In this document: positions 31,615 through 38,318 of the stretch, piece by piece
How the letters are laid out: each line of letters starts with the position of its first letter
Position numbering within the stretch: position 1 is the stretch's first letter
Source of the DNA: Stygiolobus caldivivus
GTDB lineage: Archaea > Thermoproteota > Thermoprotei_A > Sulfolobales > Sulfolobaceae
NCBI RefSeq assembly: GCF_019704315.1
Contig: NZ_AP024597.1
Coordinates: 2,108,001-2,172,000, forward strand
Length of the DNA: 64,000 bases
Direction of reading: 5' to 3'
Position numbers and translations under genes: made by a program
The notes under the pieces: model-generated
What the model was told of the DNA's origin: nothing
What the model saw: the letters and a program-made list of their open reading frames with translations, nothing else
Databases searched by the model: none

Positions 31615-34365
31615 ATGGATATCGTAAGGAGTTTTGATCATACTCGCTCCGCTACCAGAAGGATGAGCTCACCTGTTGAGGGTGTGGAGGTTTATGTTGG
31701 GTCGTGGTTCTTAGAGAATTACCCTACCAGTATGGACGAACCTAGAGAATCGGAGATAAGGATTAAGCTCCCGCAAAATATGGTATTACCTAGGGAGTTT
31801 TACGTAGTGTTAAGGGACCTGGATTCACAAGCAGAGCAAATGAGGCTTTATTTCAGGCTGGAAAACGATCAGGACGTTAGCAAGGGGGATGTAATAGGGT
31901 CTTCGCTGATAAAGTCAGATAGGTCAATAAGGCTCCTTAGACCAAACACTGAGGCTAAATACTATTTGGAAATAGAGGGGAATAGGTACGTAGTAACGGT
32001 AGTGAACTTCGTACCTATAGTCATAAGGGAAAATGGCAACCATACGTTTCTATTTGAACTGTCTATAGAGAACATCACTGAGAACAGGGTTGAGTTCGTA
32101 GAAAAATTTTACGTAATACAACGTATTACTGTAAAATATATTTTATCTAAAGTGTTCGATAACCAATTTTACCAATCTATAGTAGGGAGTATACTTAATT
32201 ATTCTTCAGCTTTTCCGTTAAAAGTGTATTTGTATAAGGAGGGGAAGTTAGAGGATAAAAACGCCTTTTTGTATAAACCGTGTAAGTCTTCTTACCTCGA
32301 AGACCAAGACGAGGCTAAGTGCTTGGGTAGCCTCAGAGATGAACTAGATCAGCTGATAAACAAGTATAAACCTGAAAGACCTGATGAATACTTAGTCCTT
32401 ATAGGTTCAAAAGCCGTCAACGATGTTGTCGACAAGTCTCTTTCATTAATGTTCTTTGAGGACCTCATGGACTTCTTTACGGATATTGTACCCGTTTATA
32501 TAATAGGTAGGCAAGCTGAATACGTTGGTGGAGTAGAGAAGCTTTTTCTCAATATGTTCGTGGCACCGCCTGATAGGGTAGAGGACTATGTAAAGGGCTA
32601 CTTAGATTTAATTGCGAGGCATGACTTCGTTAGTGACGCGGGGTATACTAGAGTGGAAGACCTAACTTTAGTTAAGCAAGGTGACTTTTACCTGCTGATA
32701 ACTCCTATAATTACCCTCGATTTTATTAAGGCCTTAATAGGGTATGTGTTAAGTAAGGATGAGGAGAAAGCTAGAGATTTATTAGAGAACTTCAAGGAAT
32801 ATCAAGCGAAAAAAATAAGGGATTTGCAGGCTTCGCTACTCTCAAAAATACTTGGTAAAAACGTTAACTATGAAAGGCCCTCTTACTACTTTTCTAAAGC
32901 GATATATGAGCTTACTAGCTCTGATTGCCAGAATTCGCCGTATTATTTTCCATTTAGTAGTCTCCTTATCCAGAGGGACAGTAATTACTTATTTACAATT
33001 CCATTTATTGAAGAGCAATGGGGGTGTAAGACATTTTACGGGTTAGGTGACCTCTTCGTTAATATCCTTTTAGACGGTAGTTTAGTGCTTTTAAGCGGGG
33101 TTGAAAGAGTCATAAACACTGTTAGGAGCTATATTGACGAGGTAGACAAACTTGATTTAAACCTGGTTAAAGAACTAGACGTAAGGCATGAGTTCCTGAT
33201 GCGCCTTCTAAATGACTTAATAGTTGCTATACTTTTTAATAATAAGAACCAGCCTAAACCGGAAGTTGATAGGGTAGTAGACCTCTCCAAAAGGGCATTT
33301 ATTATAACTTATGCTAAACTTAAATACGACCTACACCGGGTCTATGCGTTATTTGAAAAAATATGTTATAATCCTAAAGCGTCTTTCATTAGGAATATAC
33401 TGAAATTATACGGTGATGATAGGGAGAAATTCATCCTCGATCTGGTATTAACTCTACGTGATGCCTATTTTATAAAATTGTTAGAGTCAAACGGGATTAA
33501 AATTACTAGAAACTATTTCTACCTTCTATCTATAAATAAGGCTAATATACCTAAATCAGAGATAAAGAGTGCAACGTCTACAATTGAAGGACTAATAAAT
33601 TTCTATTATAAATATCATACCAGATATGGGAAAAGAGCAAAGGAGATATTGTTACCTGTCTTCCGACAGTTTGTATTAAACACGTTTATTAGAGGATTAA
33701 GACTTCCCCCGGCGGACGAGATCCCTTCGTCTTTCAATGCACAAGAGTTTTCGTCGTTAATTAGTGAGGTTGACTGCGGGTTACCTTTATTGAGTCCTAA
33801 CTTGCTCGGGGCTTTTGAGAGTAAAGTAAATTACGAGGCGTTTAGGAACGTCCCTCTACCGGTTTTAATATACGTACCAGATAGGAATACCATTACTGTG
33901 AACGGCAGGACAACTATGGTCACAAGAAAAAATTTCGTATTATTTTCCTTTACTACACCCATAATAACACTAGAAGATGAGTTCACACTTGCTCATCACG
34001 GGCATAAGATAATGGTAAAAGGAGAACAAGTATATGTAGAACATGAAGGTAATGAGCACCCCGAAATTATAATAACATTAAAATACCCCGACGTTAAGGA
34101 GGCCCTGAAGTACATACCAGATGAGGGCTTATTTACTAAAAACTTTAATGAAATTTTTAACACTAACTATACCTCGGCATTTTCTATCTTGGATGATATA
34201 ATTACGTCTGCTAGGGATCAGGGAGTAGCTTTAGCGTGCGCGAATATTCAACCAATGATAAACCCTTCTGTGACTGCGAGTGTTAAATTTAAGCCTGGGT
34301 CAATAAGGCTTGGGCTCCTGACCCCTACTAGACGTAGAGATAGAGATACCCGTATTTTCTTGTAG
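31615..34365 (+). CDS. 916-residue protein of unknown function
   Basis: A large soluble protein without signal peptide or obvious membrane helix. Residues about 20-180 are beta-rich. The segment about 255-345 (YLVLIGSKAV, then PVYIIGRQAEYVGG) has the strand-helix rhythm of the second half of a von Willebrand A fold, without a MIDAS motif. The middle is helical with several Cys (CKSS, CLGS, DCQNS, CGL). The C-terminal part returns to beta, and the last residues are basic (TPTRRRDRDTR). I do not recognise a family. Codon use looks like that of its neighbours. The gene is single, with 643 bases of empty DNA after it. Confidence 0.75.
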   Translation: MDIVRSFDHTRSATRRMSSPVEGVEVYVGSWFLENYPTSMDEPRESEIRIKLPQNMVLPREFYVVLRDLDSQAEQMRLYFRLENDQDVSKGDVIGSSLIKSDRSIRLLRPNTEAKYYLEIEGNRYVVTVVNFVPIVIRENGNHTFLFELSIENITENRVEFVEKFYVIQRITVKYILSKVFDNQFYQSIVGSILNYSSAFPLKVYLYKEGKLEDKNAFLYKPCKSSYLEDQDEAKCLGSLRDELDQLINKYKPERPDEYLVLIGSKAVNDVVDKSLSLMFFEDLMDFFTDIVPVYIIGRQAEYVGGVEKLFLNMFVAPPDRVEDYVKGYLDLIARHDFVSDAGYTRVEDLTLVKQGDFYLLITPIITLDFIKALIGYVLSKDEEKARDLLENFKEYQAKKIRDLQASLLSKILGKNVNYERPSYYFSKAIYELTSSDCQNSPYYFPFSSLLIQRDSNYLFTIPFIEEQWGCKTFYGLGDLFVNILLDGSLVLLSGVERVINTVRSYIDEVDKLDLNLVKELDVRHEFLMRLLNDLIVAILFNNKNQPKPEVDRVVDLSKRAFIITYAKLKYDLHRVYALFEKICYNPKASFIRNILKLYGDDREKFILDLVLTLRDAYFIKLLESNGIKITRNYFYLLSINKANIPKSEIKSATSTIEGLINFYYKYHTRYGKRAKEILLPVFRQFVLNTFIRGLRLPPADEIPSSFNAQEFSSLISEVDCGLPLLSPNLLGAFESKVNYEAFRNVPLPVLIYVPDRNTITVNGRTTMVTRKNFVLFSFTTPIITLEDEFTLAHHGHKIMVKGEQVYVEHEGNEHPEIIITLKYPDVKEALKYIPDEGLFTKNFNEIFNTNYTSAFSILDDIITSARDQGVALACANIQPMINPSVTASVKFKPGSIRLGLLTPTRRRDRDTRIFL

Positions 34366-35008
34366 AAAGCGAGGTAGGAACCACGGCATTTATACCGGAA
34401 AATTACGGTAGTTTTAAAGTATATTATACCCGACATCAGTCTGAAATGCAACAGAGTCCTGAACGACTTAGCGTATTGAGGAAGTCCCTTTGTCCATTAA
34501 AGGTTCTATACGCTTATGTCTCTAATATACCTACAGTTTAACGGGTCTATTGCGAGTCCCGTAAATATCGTTTTATCCCCTTTTTGGGTGTGGGCTTATA
34601 TTGTTTTTCGCTAACTGTTTACTTGTTTTGCCCTTATGATACTAAGGGAGGACATGACACTATCATTCAGCAGTTATTCTACTTTAACGTATCTAAAAGA
34701 TTTTCAATAGAACCGGTGAATTACCTAAACTATTTTCAACAGGCCTGAGGAGTTCCCCAATCCCGAGATAGCTCTTAGTAATGCCCAGCCCCTTTTAGTA
34801 CTCCATATTTTTCAATAAACCGGACGTAAAAACTAAAAACTTTATCAGTAATACCAAGTGTTTCGTATTACCAAGGAAAAGTAGAATAACTGCTGTATCA
34901 TTCTATAGATCGTGCGTGAAAGGGATTCAGCCCCGTAGCGACGGTATAGGAAAAGGACTTAACATGCCTCAAGTACTGTGAAGAGATTTATAGCTTAATG
35001 ACTGCAAC
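34366..35008. other. gene-free stretch
   Basis: I see no gene and no clear repeat. ATTTATAG at 34986-34993 is a possible TATA box for the operon starting at 35009. Confidence 0.35.
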
Positions 35009-35236
35009 ATGAAACTTTTATCTGATTTGTATTTACTGTTTTTTAATTGTATTTTATTATTAATCTTATTTTTTATACAAAAATGCGGTTACTATACTGG
35101 AGGGGTCGTTAGGACGCCATACACAAGGCCTCTGAAAGTCCTTGCTGACGTAATTCTGCTGTGGTTTATAATAAGTGCTAATCGTATTATGCCCCTTTAC
35201 GTTTTTAAAAAGAAGGAGTTAAGGAAAGAAGTATGA
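35009..35236 (+). CDS. small membrane protein at the head of an operon
   Basis: 75 residues: a strongly hydrophobic helix (LYLLFFNCILLLILFFIQ), a short polar loop, a second helix (LADVILLWFIISA) and a basic tail. Its stop overlaps the start of the winged-helix gene in an ATGA, which argues that it is translated. The TATA box is only about 23 bases ahead of the ATG, a little short, so the start is uncertain. I know no family. Confidence 0.5.
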   Translation: MKLLSDLYLLFFNCILLLILFFIQKCGYYTGGVVRTPYTRPLKVLADVILLWFIISANRIMPLYVFKKKELRKEV

Positions 35237-35742
35237 TTACAAAGGAACAGCTAATGAATGTGTTGCAACAGCTTTATGACGGAAAGCCCGTTGCTTTTTC
35301 TAAAATAAAAAGGAAGGTACGTGAGAGCCCAGAGACTATCGAAGAACTCTTGACTGAGTTAGAGGGAGAGGGGCTAATTAAGAGGTACGACGTTGGGGGA
35401 GGAAAGGCTTATGAGCCTGTTAAGAGCGACCCGACCGCTCAAATACTTTATATGCTCAAGGAAATAAAAGAAGAGTTAAAACGATTGGAAGTATTAGTGA
35501 CTGATAAGAATAGAATTGATTTCTCAATTTTTGATAAAATATATGATGAAGTTAAGGACAATTTAGGCTATGCATCACTACAATCTATACGTATAGAACT
35601 AGGGTTGTCCAGAGAAGAGTTCTACTCTAGGTTTAAGAACCACATAGAGTCCAATTATGACCTAATAGCAGGGGGAGAAGAGGGGTTAATGAAGAAGGGG
35701 GTAGTTTACGGGATAATAAAGAAGAGGGGTAATGGGAAATGA
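35233..35742 (+). CDS. winged-helix DNA-binding protein
   Basis: 169 residues. Residues about 1-65 form a winged helix: FSKIKRKVRESPETIEELL as helix-turn-helix, then GEGLIKRYDVGGGKAYEP as the wing. A coiled segment (MLKEIKEELKRLEVLV) may dimerise it. The C-terminal half (LQSIRIELGLSREEFYSRF) resembles a second winged helix. It is coupled by ATGA to the gene before and by a four-base overlap to the ATPase gene after. This suggests one complex or an adaptor for the ATPase; autoregulation is also possible. Confidence 0.7.
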   Translation: MITKEQLMNVLQQLYDGKPVAFSKIKRKVRESPETIEELLTELEGEGLIKRYDVGGGKAYEPVKSDPTAQILYMLKEIKEELKRLEVLVTDKNRIDFSIFDKIYDEVKDNLGYASLQSIRIELGLSREEFYSRFKNHIESNYDLIAGGEEGLMKKGVVYGIIKKRGNGK

Positions 35743-37091
35743 TATGTAATATCCCTAAGGTTACAGTTACCACGTGGTCGTCAGATAATATAGTCCTAGC
35801 AGGCCCTACCTATAGGCAATACCTCAACAAGTCTATAGATATTATTAACTCTAAGGATGTAGCGTCAATTATCGGCCAGCCTGGCATGGGGAAGACTACT
35901 ATCCTCAGGAAGGCTGAAGAGTCGTGCAAAGGTAAGATGTTCACTTTCTTCTTAGACTTAGCTAGTAAAAACGAGATAGAAGAAGAGTTCTGGAGTAGGA
36001 TAGACCGTTTTAAGTTAAGGGAGATAGTACTCCCTAAGATGGACAAGAAAAAATACGGCTACTCTTTCTTTAAAAAGCTTAGAGGCTTAAGTTTTGAAAG
36101 CCACTTAGAAGGGCTATGTAATAAGCTTAACGACCCGCTACTTAGGCTTTACTGTGTAGACTACAGTAAGGACTTTGACGGTATGTTAAGGCTAATCGGG
36201 GACTTAAAAGCGATTACCGACGTCGTCCTCTTTATAGATGAGGTGAGGGACTTCCACCTATCTAAAATACACAGACTGATAAACTCAGGGCTGGCAGTCC
36301 CAGTACTTATGGCAATACCTACTGATGCTTATAATAAAGTCACGGACCTAGCTATAAGGAGGAGGTTGGACGAGAGTAGGATAAGCCTAGACAGTGCATT
36401 AACATCTGAAGATATAAAGGAAATAATAGAAGCCTACTGTAAACCGCTTGCAGATGAGCTATACCCTATAATTTTGTCCATGTGGAACGGGAAGGAGCTA
36501 AACACGGTAAGTTCAATTTTACAGTACATAAAGAGTGAGGTGGACAAAGCTATAAATGCGTGTGGTAAAGAGGAAGTAGACTGTGTAAAAGAGAAAATTA
36601 AAAGCTCTTACACTTTGAAAGATGTCGAAAGCGACTCTAAAACACTAGAAAAGATGATAAGAGAAACTATAAATAGTCTTTCTAAAGAGCTGGAGATCTC
36701 ATACGTACACCCTAGGGGCAAAAGGGTCGAGATAAAAGGTAAAACTATAACCGTCGGGATCTTCTTTATTTATAACGAAATGGCTTACATAGGGCTGGTT
36801 AAGCTAATGAACAGTTCCGAGGTAGACTTAGAGGCCCAGCTGTTATCTTTTCTGGAGGTTGTGGAACATGATAAGAAGGAGTATAAGGTGGCTAAGAAAT
36901 TTATAATAACCAACGGTAAGATAGACGTACAAGGAGTTGAGACCGTTGAACTGTCTACACTAGAAGTGGTTAGGATTATCCGCGGGGACAACGTTATCTT
37001 GGACGAAAAGGTTAGAAATTTATTAAAGAACATCCTAATTCAGAAGGATACGAATACTGTAAAATCTCCTGAATCTGAAGTAGTGACATAA
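35739..37091 (+). CDS. P-loop ATPase of the archaeal AAA/STAND kind
   Basis: 450 residues. Walker A is GQPGMGKTT (about 47-55) and Walker B is VVLFIDEV (about 163-170), followed by an Arg-rich helix (AIRRRLDESR) that may hold the sensor arginine. After the ATPase and a helical region, residues about 320-435 form a beta-alpha-beta domain (KTITVGIFFIYNEMAYIGLV, KKFIITNG, VETVELSTLEVV) reminiscent of the degenerate nuclease-like domain of DUF234-type archaeal ATPases. That resemblance is by eye only. Coupled to the winged-helix gene. It is a candidate molecular switch of an uncharacterised DNA-linked system. Confidence 0.75.
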   Translation: MICNIPKVTVTTWSSDNIVLAGPTYRQYLNKSIDIINSKDVASIIGQPGMGKTTILRKAEESCKGKMFTFFLDLASKNEIEEEFWSRIDRFKLREIVLPKMDKKKYGYSFFKKLRGLSFESHLEGLCNKLNDPLLRLYCVDYSKDFDGMLRLIGDLKAITDVVLFIDEVRDFHLSKIHRLINSGLAVPVLMAIPTDAYNKVTDLAIRRRLDESRISLDSALTSEDIKEIIEAYCKPLADELYPIILSMWNGKELNTVSSILQYIKSEVDKAINACGKEEVDCVKEKIKSSYTLKDVESDSKTLEKMIRETINSLSKELEISYVHPRGKRVEIKGKTITVGIFFIYNEMAYIGLVKLMNSSEVDLEAQLLSFLEVVEHDKKEYKVAKKFIITNGKIDVQGVETVELSTLEVVRIIRGDNVILDEKVRNLLKNILIQKDTNTVKSPESEVVT

Positions 37092-37122
37092 TTTTTAAGG
37101 CTATGAGGCCTTAATACGTCTC

Positions 37123-37893
37123 GTGATCGATGCCAGAATTATAAATTTCCTGAGGCTTGCCGAAGCTTACAAAGGTGATCTAAGGCTCCTAGGGGAGTTA
37201 GAGTTATCTATAGGAAATATGAAAGTAATTTCGTCAGTAAATATAGATGAGGAAGACTTTAAAAACTTGTTAAAATTAGGAAATGATGATATAACTATTA
37301 GGGTTGGCGAAGGTTTCCTCTCTATTTATGATAATGTCGGGAAGAGGGAGCTGAGAGTATACAGTGAATTGAAGGAGTTGTTTAAAAAAGCCTTAGCTAT
37401 TTATGAACTACTTAAAGTACAAGCTCCATCTATCGTTGTGTTCCACGGTTCTAATTTATCGATAGTGAAGAGGGTAATAGGTTACGGGGTTAGGAAAATA
37501 GAGTATTTTGAAGCTACGGGTACGGTGGTCTTAAACGACTTGGTCGAGTTGACCAACTGGGATGAGAGGTGTTTGATCAATATTTTGCTCTATGCCGGTG
37601 ACGTGATCAAGCCCCTAAAAATTTCAGACTGTCAATACTACTTACCATTATTACCGCTATTAGTTCAAAGAGGGGGAATTTTTGAGAAGGATTATGCTGA
37701 GTTCGGATGTAATAAGGTATCTCCGCCTAATTTGAACCTTCTTAAGGTCATGTTAGAGAAAAATTTAAAAAATTGTTACCATATATCTGCTGGTCATCCT
37801 GACAAGAACATAGAAAAAATTAATTATATTGAAGCTAATTATGAAAGGGCTAGAGTATTTATAGTAGATGATAAAGTAAACGTTAGCACTTAA
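37123..37893 (+). CDS. protein of unknown function after the ATPase gene
   Basis: 256 residues, soluble, mixed alpha/beta. The GTG start lies about 30 bases after an A/T-rich box (AATTTTTAAG, 37090-37099), suggesting its own leaderless transcript, though the ATPase gene ends only 31 bases earlier. Visible segments are an amphipathic start, GVRKIEYFEATGTVVLNDL in the middle and several Cys in the second half (CLIN, CQYY, CNKV, CYHI). No family recognised. Confidence 0.65.
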   Translation: MIDARIINFLRLAEAYKGDLRLLGELELSIGNMKVISSVNIDEEDFKNLLKLGNDDITIRVGEGFLSIYDNVGKRELRVYSELKELFKKALAIYELLKVQAPSIVVFHGSNLSIVKRVIGYGVRKIEYFEATGTVVLNDLVELTNWDERCLINILLYAGDVIKPLKISDCQYYLPLLPLLVQRGGIFEKDYAEFGCNKVSPPNLNLLKVMLEKNLKNCYHISAGHPDKNIEKINYIEANYERARVFIVDDKVNVST

Positions 37894-37970: not shown

Positions 37971-38318
37971 ATGAGCAGTTATAACCCAGGTTATAATCCA
38001 GTATACAATTATCCACAAGTAAATTACCCTCAAGCTAATCTGGTGAAATACGTAAGGGTTGGGGAAATTTATATGAGGGGAGTAGCTAAATTGTACTTAT
38101 ACTCCATGGGTCAAGTTTCTGTTTTATCTGCTCAAATAGATAGTACGCCATATGTTTCACAAGCTTTGTCCTCATACTATTTGATGAAAGGCTATAATGA
38201 AATTACTGTATACTTTTCAGGAATACTTAATTCCTTAAAAGTAGGTGAAAGGAGGACTGTTCTATTAACGACTGGGGACAAGGATGTAGTCGGTATACCC
38301 GCTGTCGTAGTGGGTTAA
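37971..38318 (+). CDS. small protein with Tyr/Pro/Asn-rich N-terminus
   Basis: 115 residues. The first 23 (SSYNPGYNPVYNYPQVNYPQ) are low-complexity Tyr/Pro/Asn, followed by a beta-rich domain (VAKLYLYSMGQVSVLSAQI, NEITVYFSGIL, RRTVLLTTGD). It has no signal peptide. It could be an extended adhesive or scaffold tail; the function is unknown. The stop overlaps by four bases the end of the convergent PadR-like gene. Confidence 0.6.
   Translation: MSSYNPGYNPVYNYPQVNYPQANLVKYVRVGEIYMRGVAKLYLYSMGQVSVLSAQIDSTPYVSQALSSYYLMKGYNEITVYFSGILNSLKVGERRTVLLTTGDKDVVGIPAVVVG

What the first reader, a model, noticed from the sequence alone, without database searches (positions are those of the whole stretch)
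35009..37893. Coupled membrane protein / winged helix / P-loop ATPase set with an unknown fourth gene
Three genes overlap by four bases each (ATGA at 35233-35236, and 35739-35742), so they are made as a unit. The parts are a two-helix membrane protein, a probable double winged-helix protein and an ATPase with a possible degenerate nuclease-like end. A fourth unknown protein follows. Such a sensor, adaptor and switch combination is what stress or defence modules look like, and I know no description of this one.
Basis: inference. Interest (0 to 1): 0.55.

Follow-up and report, generated by a model that had tools for sequence, protein, structure and literature searches.

The report
Nuclease-dead relative of archaeal defence pair
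Two tightly coupled archaeal genes make a DNA-binding adaptor and an ATPase whose close cousins carry an apparently intact DNA-cutting end and partly sit in immune loci, and four mobile genetic elements carry a cut-down copy of the adaptor, so this near-universal copy, whose cutting end is broken, looks like a defence part turned to a household task.

Summary
The real unit is a two-gene pair, not four. P2 (35233-35742) is a double winged-helix protein. P3 (35739-37091) is an Orc/MuB/TnsC-type AAA+ ATPase with a C-terminal PD-(D/E)XK-like domain. P2 lies directly upstream of P3 at 42 of 42 Sulfolobaceae places examined. P3 is found in 29 of 31 Sulfolobaceae species, and nuclease-less relatives in 17 of 19 and 24 of 25 species of two further families. 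The 75-aa 'membrane protein' lies in a repeat-bearing insertion missing from the sister species and is probably not a gene; the fourth gene is a genus-level neighbour. The window's copy belongs to a near-core clade in which none of 26 members keeps the D...DxK triad, under purifying selection; all 15 accessory copies keep it. Three accessory copies lie at CRISPR-Cas loci, one moved between genera. Four mobile elements (ATV2, ARV3, an IMG/VR contig, plasmid pDL10) carry P2 without its first winged helix and without P3; a single origin is rejected. Best reading: a defence-type ATPase-nuclease pair whose window copy became a nuclease-dead, DNA-bound switch. A 2024 paper already proposed the cassette as immunity and viral copies as antagonists, untested; it assigns the viral part to the N-terminal domain, whereas the alignment shows the C-terminal one.

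The parts
35233..35742 (+). P2, 169 aa adaptor: two winged-helix domains joined by a helix
   Evidence: AlphaFold2 model, pLDDT 85.5; P2 directly upstream of P3 in 31/31 + 11/11 Sulfolobaceae pairs
35242..35418 (+). wHTH1 of P2 (residues 4-62), MarR-like winged helix; absent from the mobile-element copies
   Evidence: (best Z 10.3, SlyA)
35431..35502 (+). linker helix of P2 (residues 67-90), kept in mobile-element copies
35521..35724 (+). wHTH2 of P2 (residues 97-164), the part shared by all copies including Thermoproteales and mobile elements
35739..37091 (+). P3, 450 aa AAA+ ATPase with degenerate PD-(D/E)XK-like C-terminal domain
35739..35742 (+). ATGA stop/start overlap coupling P2 and P3
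   Evidence: sequence
35874..35897 (+). Walker A GQPGMGKT (P3 residues 46-53)
   Evidence: G46, P48-T53 invariant in 31 of 31
36225..36242 (+). Walker B, ends D167-E168
   Evidence: D167 and E168 invariant in 31 of 31
36624..37034 (+). C-terminal alpha/beta domain, PD-(D/E)XK-like (P3 residues 296-432)
   Evidence: secondary structure; motif columns; same description for the SiRe_2373 homologue in PMC11065993
36756..36758 (+). lost first catalytic Asp: Gly340 here, Asp in the accessory copies
36795..36797 (+). lost second acidic residue of DxK: Leu353 here (Lys355 kept)
34366..35160 (.). insertion absent from the sister species, containing interspersed repeats (34668-35006); its right end is approximate
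35009..35236 (+).
37123..37893 (+). neighbour of unknown function, 256 aa; same-strand neighbour in this genus only, not a conserved part

Best explanation
P2 and P3 are a two-protein complex of an old Thermoproteota family. Shown: they are coupled genes; P2 has two winged helices; P3 is an Orc/MuB/TnsC-type AAA+ ATPase; the window's clade has lost the PD-(D/E)XK triad while both genes stay under purifying selection; accessory cousins keep the triad; mobile elements carry only the helix plus the second winged helix of P2. Inferred: the second winged helix docks on the ATPase, the first reads DNA, and ATP-driven assembly on DNA is the switch. In accessory copies this fires the nuclease against invading DNA or the infected cell. 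Mobile elements send the cut-down adaptor to occupy the ATPase without delivering it to DNA. The window's copy has lost cutting and works as a DNA-bound ATPase switch in a chromosomal or regulatory task (a domesticated defence part).
For: Pair linkage 31/31 and 11/11 in Sulfolobaceae and 12/12 in Thermoproteales f20 loci. P3 in 29 of 31 Sulfolobaceae, 17 of 19 f20 and 24 of 25 f29 genomes. Triad in 0 of 21 clade A and 10 of 10 B/C copies; in 11 further copies, A 0 of 5, B/C 5 of 5, and one basal copy with Arg for Lys. dN/dS 0.02-0.15 in the six of eight clade A pairs where dS is computable, in the dead domain too. Three B copies next to cas3, cas6 or CRISPR arrays, one of them moved between genera (0.897 against 0.574 nucleotide identity for copy A). 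Four of four mobile-element copies match only P2 residues from about 55-83 onward; one origin rejected, p-AU 4e-43; they fall among B/C copies. Fold match Orc2 Z 15.0, TnsC 14.6, MuB 14.4. The wHTH2 region is the part of P2 that the family shares with Thermoproteales, where the pairing is kept.
Against: No function has been tested for any member. No complex was modelled, so P2-P3 contact is inferred from linkage. Thermoproteales relatives lack the nuclease domain altogether, so the ancestral role may never have been defence, and the nuclease copies may be the derived ones. The Cas neighbours concern 3 of the 7 group B copies whose context was read; the other accessory copies are near transposase-like and metabolic genes. 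One deep relative (L158) keeps both acidic residues with Arg for Lys, and L163 in clade A has the first Asp.
Confidence: 0.55

Rival explanations
1. The whole family, the window's copy included, is an abortive-infection toxin-antitoxin system: P3 is the toxin, P2 the antitoxin, and viral P2-like proteins replace the antitoxin (the proposal of PMC11065993).
For: Small DNA-binding protein upstream of a larger ATPase-nuclease; viral copies; wording of PMC11065993 sections 10 and 11.
Against: In the window's clade the nuclease triad is gone in 26 of 26 copies, P3 is in 29 of 31 species, and mobile copies group with B/C, not A. A toxin without its catalytic residues would need another toxic activity.
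Confidence: 0.2
2. Housekeeping AAA+ DNA regulator from the start (replication, segregation or transcription); the nuclease copies in Sulfolobaceae are a late defence offshoot.
For: Thermoproteales relatives have no nuclease domain and are near-universal there; fold neighbours are Orc, MuB and TnsC; strong purifying selection.
Against: Absent from the other families of the order sampled and from two genera, so dispensable on long time scales; no conserved replication or segregation neighbour.
Confidence: 0.25
3. Mobile-element copies are transcription factors of the elements, unrelated to blocking P3; the second winged helix is simply a DNA-binding domain.
For: wHTH2 is a winged helix; ATV2 and ARV3 carry CopG-type regulators near these genes.
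Against: Four copies from at least two origins have lost the same half and kept the same half; random recruitment of a regulator would more likely keep the MarR-like domain.
Confidence: 0.25

Closest known systems
SiRe_2374/SiRe_2373 cassette and viral ADG.51 (arCOG03737), PMC11065993
   Same: Two-wHTH protein upstream of an AAA ATPase with C-terminal PD-DExK domain; homologues in ARV3 and ATV2 (the same two viruses as found here)
   Different: In the sections read, the paper does not separate a nuclease-dead near-core clade from accessory intact copies, gives no Thermoproteales relatives, IMG/VR contig or pDL10, and assigns the viral part to the N-terminal wHTH; here it aligns to the C-terminal one. 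Sequences of SiRe_2373/2374 were not held, so their clade is unknown.
Cran1 (SiRe_0086), PMC12796447
   Same: A family of defence ATPase-nucleases with a Sulfolobales member serving the cell cycle
   Different: OLD family with a nickase activity and a membrane-protein neighbour; Cran1 is active and appears essential; no sequence relation was tested here
OLD / PARIS systems
   Same: ATPase plus nuclease toxin logic
   Different: P3 is AAA+ of the Orc/TnsC type with a PD-(D/E)XK-like end, not an OLD-type ATPase with Toprim (family definitions recalled)
Orc1/Cdc6, MuB, TnsC
   Same: AAA+ fold, Z 14-15
   Different: No winged helix in the same chain as Orc has; no transposase or origin neighbour seen

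Membership tests
ADG.51-target cassette (arCOG03737 + ATPase-PD-DExK) | two-wHTH protein in a likely operon just upstream of the ATPase | tested here: met
ADG.51-target cassette (arCOG03737 + ATPase-PD-DExK) | AAA ATPase N-terminal domain | tested here: met
   Walker A and B invariant
ADG.51-target cassette (arCOG03737 + ATPase-PD-DExK) | catalytically intact PD-(D/E)XK domain | tested here: not met
   window Gly340/Leu353; 0 of 26 in its clade
ADG.51-target cassette (arCOG03737 + ATPase-PD-DExK) | direct homology to SiRe_2373/SiRe_2374 | not tested
   sequences not held; link goes through the ATV2 and ARV3 homologues named in the paper
type II toxin-antitoxin / abortive infection | toxicity of P3 relieved by P2 | not testable with these tools
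   needs expression in cells
OLD / PARIS | OLD- or AriA-type ATPase | tested here: inconclusive
   no AriA or OLD model among the P3 hits in PADLOC or Pfam; best folds are Orc/TnsC/MuB
Orc1/Cdc6 initiators | AAA+ followed by a winged helix in the same chain | tested here: not met
   residues 296-432 are alpha/beta in the model
TnsC/MuB transposition regulators | transposase partner next to the ATPase | tested here: not met
   the constant neighbour is P2 alone
PADLOC-listed defence systems | match of P2 or P3 to a PADLOC model beyond a generic wHTH or P-loop | tested here: not met
   best P2 hit is the Csa3 wHTH (8e-6); P3 at most 8e-4 over the P-loop

The most novel reading that the evidence does not exclude
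An ancient wHTH-AAA+ DNA switch, near-universal in Thermoproteales and Sulfolobaceae, acquired a nuclease and became a mobile, CRISPR-neighbouring immune device. It was then re-domesticated by loss of the triad in one near-core clade. At least three times, mobile elements independently carved the same cut-down adaptor out of it as a decoy against the immune copies.
Probability: 0.4. Interest if true: 0.72.

Novelty: new variant of a known kind. Interest (0 to 1): 0.52.

Why it matters
If true, Sulfolobaceae hold an uncharacterised immune ATPase-nuclease that viruses of two families and a plasmid answer with the same cut-down adaptor, plus a nuclease-dead paralogue kept in nearly every species. 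The decoy, the intact pair and the dead pair are all small and can be tested in laboratory strains, and the decoy gives a direct handle on which part of P2 binds P3.

Tried and rejected
ORF1 as membrane sensor: rejected. The 916-aa upstream gene as partner: found in 2 of 147 genomes only. P4 as a fourth component: not adjacent outside the genus.

P3 on viruses or plasmids: none found (phages; plasmids; viral contigs). A Thermoproteales P2 found nothing in phages. Sequence search in solved structures: P3 gave nothing with one sequence and P-loop matches of many families with the profile; P2 gave mostly MarR-type or weak matches.

The first phylum search with the Sulfolobaceae profile gave 114 of 300 genomes, but outside Sulfolobaceae mostly Walker A matches; the wider profile at E<=1e-6 gave 62 of 398. 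The genome-contig scan gave only 6 loci. A viral-contig scan with the window's P2 gave none.

Defence-neighbourhood tally: 94 of 94 neighbour proteins (90 aa or more, within 6.5 kb) of the 10 accessory loci hit 83 PADLOC families; 107 of 120 listed neighbours of core loci hit 36. I left out the 13 of L059 as near-copies of L058, so 10 of the 20 fetched core loci were used. Families of one kind repeat and 'Cas12f' hits are probably TnpB, so I use only the named Cas neighbours (10 of the 94 proteins were looked at one by one). The place of group C differs between two trees (sister of A at 99/97; elsewhere in the midpoint-rooted tree), with long-branch warnings, so I draw nothing from it. dN/dS for one accessory pair (L075/L077) was 0.47-0.65; dS is small and I draw nothing firm from it. 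The solo host copy in L085 is nearest pDL10 but has no other pDL10 gene around it; no tRNA there.

Literature searches that gave nothing on the pair beyond PMC11065993.

Full report
What is there. The window lies at G000:C1:2108001-2172000 of a closed 2.96 Mb genome. ORFs at 35233-35742 (P2) and 35739-37091 (P3) overlap by ATGA. The ORF at 35009-35236 also abuts P2 by ATGA, but the interval between the 916-aa gene and P2 is 867 bases here and about 71 in the sister species G108. It holds sequence with 46 further partial matches in the same genome, mostly over window 34668-35006. The last 75 or so bases align with the sister's P2 leader (score 67; best of 200 shuffles 45), and the ORF's peptide has no tblastn hit at E<=1 in the other loci held then. 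I therefore treat it as chance.

Distribution. A single-sequence search found P3 in 22 of 147 genomes of the order: 21 of 22 Sulfolobaceae, plus one weak P-loop match. P2 matched 26 of 147, again 21 of 22 Sulfolobaceae plus five weak wHTH matches. With the profile, P3 is in 29 of 31 Sulfolobaceae species; the two without it form one genus. In two more families, f20 (17 of 19) and f29 (24 of 25), relatives of about 260-280 aa end before the nuclease-like domain. I call these Thermoproteales from recall; the tools give codes only. P2-like genes lie just upstream in 12 of 12 f20 loci. In the 10 far loci examined first, eight had a called P2-like gene next to P3, and in the other two the reading frame was seen by eye. 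By the motif C-x-(I/F)-P near the start and the A-Y-C motif, the f20 proteins align with P3 over the whole ATPase.

Two kinds of copy. In Sulfolobaceae, besides the near-core copy (A), 13 of 31 genomes have a second full-length pair (B or C) and two have only such a pair (grouped). In the tree of 36 P3 proteins A is one clade (21 rows, 100/100). The columns of the PD-(D/E)XK triad read D, D, K in 10 of 10 B/C copies and in 0 of 21 A copies, where the first Asp is Gly or Ser in all 21. As a held-out check I fetched 11 further P3 genes of 8 genomes after this was seen. Five fall in A and none has the triad (one has Asp first but Asn and Val after it), five fall in B/C and all have it (one as D, E, K), and one deep row on the A side (L158) reads D, D, R. 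All 11 have P2 directly upstream. Clade A is not decaying: dN/dS is 0.02-0.15 for ATPase and C-terminal domain in the six A pairs with computable dS; dS was saturated in two pairs, the window's own among them.

Accessory copies and defence. L077 lies next to cas3' and cas3'' and has four CRISPR-type repeats, L075 lies 2.3 kb from an array of at least 67 repeats, and L076 has cas6 about 3 kb away. These three are the first B subgroup. The L075 and L077 copies, from two genera, are 0.897 identical at nucleotide level with 0.15 of fourfold sites changed, against 0.574 and 0.69 for the A copies of the same two genomes, so this pair moved recently. The remaining accessory loci show transposase-like, permease and other neighbours, and I do not claim a defence island for them.

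Mobile elements. tblastn of P2 found ATV2 (124 aa) and ARV3 (101 aa), a viral-contig scan found an IMG/VR contig (107 aa) with an integrase and other viral families, and plasmid pDL10 has a 96-aa protein. All four match from about residue 55-83 of host P2 to its end, that is the helix and wHTH2, and none has wHTH1 or P3. wHTH1 queries of B/C copies gave no convincing match in the three viral loci (best E 0.067). In the tree of this region, ATV2 and ARV3 nest in group C (100/99), the contig among B rows, and pDL10 next to the solo host copy L085 (97/84). Holding all four together is rejected (p-AU 4e-43), and the contig plus pDL10 together at p-AU 0.031, which is weaker. A PHROG family (38850, 180 positions) matches the same end of P2 and of the contig's protein; its longer members were not seen.

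Structure. P2 is two winged helices with a helix between, the first MarR-like (SlyA Z 10.3, rmsd 4.9 over 81); the second was barely tested by that list. P3 (pLDDT 87) matches Orc2 (Z 15.0, rmsd 3.6, 235 aligned), TnsC (14.6) and MuB (14.4), with BrxC (13.7) and plant NRC resistosomes (12.9) below. The match covers residues 1-294; the C-terminal domain was not searched alone.

Mechanism. Shown: coupling, domains, loss of the triad, selection, and which part the mobile copies keep. Inferred: since wHTH2 and the AAA+ core are what Sulfolobaceae and Thermoproteales share while staying paired, wHTH2 most likely contacts P3. A copy with wHTH2 but no wHTH1 would then occupy P3 without DNA targeting. 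For the near-core copy the conserved yet dead nuclease domain suggests a structural or DNA-holding part in a chromosomal or regulatory role.

Literature. PMC11065993 (abstract, passages, sections 10 and 11 read) described ADG.51 in ATV2 and ARV3, its host homologue SiRe_2374 with two wHTH domains, and SiRe_2373 with AAA ATPase and PD-DExK domains, as hypothetical immunity or abortive infection; I saw no test of it in these sections. It says that the viral proteins hold only the N-terminal wHTH with an extra helix; the alignments here place them on the C-terminal one. It was the only paper in the library holding those gene names. PMC12796447 (abstract and passages) gives the parallel of Cran1, an OLD protein in the cell cycle. 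PMC12988326 (passages) notes low defence prevalence in Thermoproteota outside CRISPR, restriction and argonautes; PMC6249222 (one passage) gave nothing on this pair. Names of genomes were not given by the genome search; that G050 is Sulfolobus sp. A20 follows from its length in a search listing, and others (S. acidocaldarius, S. tokodaii, M. sedula) are recalled from genome length and not used as evidence.

Verdict. What is new here is the split between an intact, mobile form and a dead, near-core form, the Thermoproteales roots, and the repeated cut-down copies on mobile elements.

Noticed in passing
34668-35006: Interspersed repeat sequence with 46 other partial matches in the same genome, inside an insertion absent from the sister species; possibly a MITE-like family.
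   Followed up: partly
37971-38318: A 115-aa ORF matching the C-terminal third of DUF973 (Pfam 1.5e-13, profile 210-295 of 309), so a fragment or a stand-alone tail domain.
   Followed up: no
31615-34365: A 916-aa protein with no family match, found in only 2 of 147 genomes of the order (65% identical in the sister species).
   Followed up: partly
L157:2350-2640 (plasmid pDL10): Small cryptic plasmid of Acidianus ambivalens carries a 96-aa cut-down P2.
   Followed up: yes
L085:8346-8549 and G090:C1:552612-553147: A solo wHTH2 remnant and, elsewhere in the same genome, a broken C-terminal piece of P3 with stops: possibly debris of an accessory pair.
   Followed up: partly
P3 residues 3, 127, 234, 275, 282 (window 35739-37091): Cysteines invariant in 31 of 31 Sulfolobaceae P3; two of them (3 and 234) are shared with the f20 relatives, suggesting disulphides or a metal site.
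   Followed up: no
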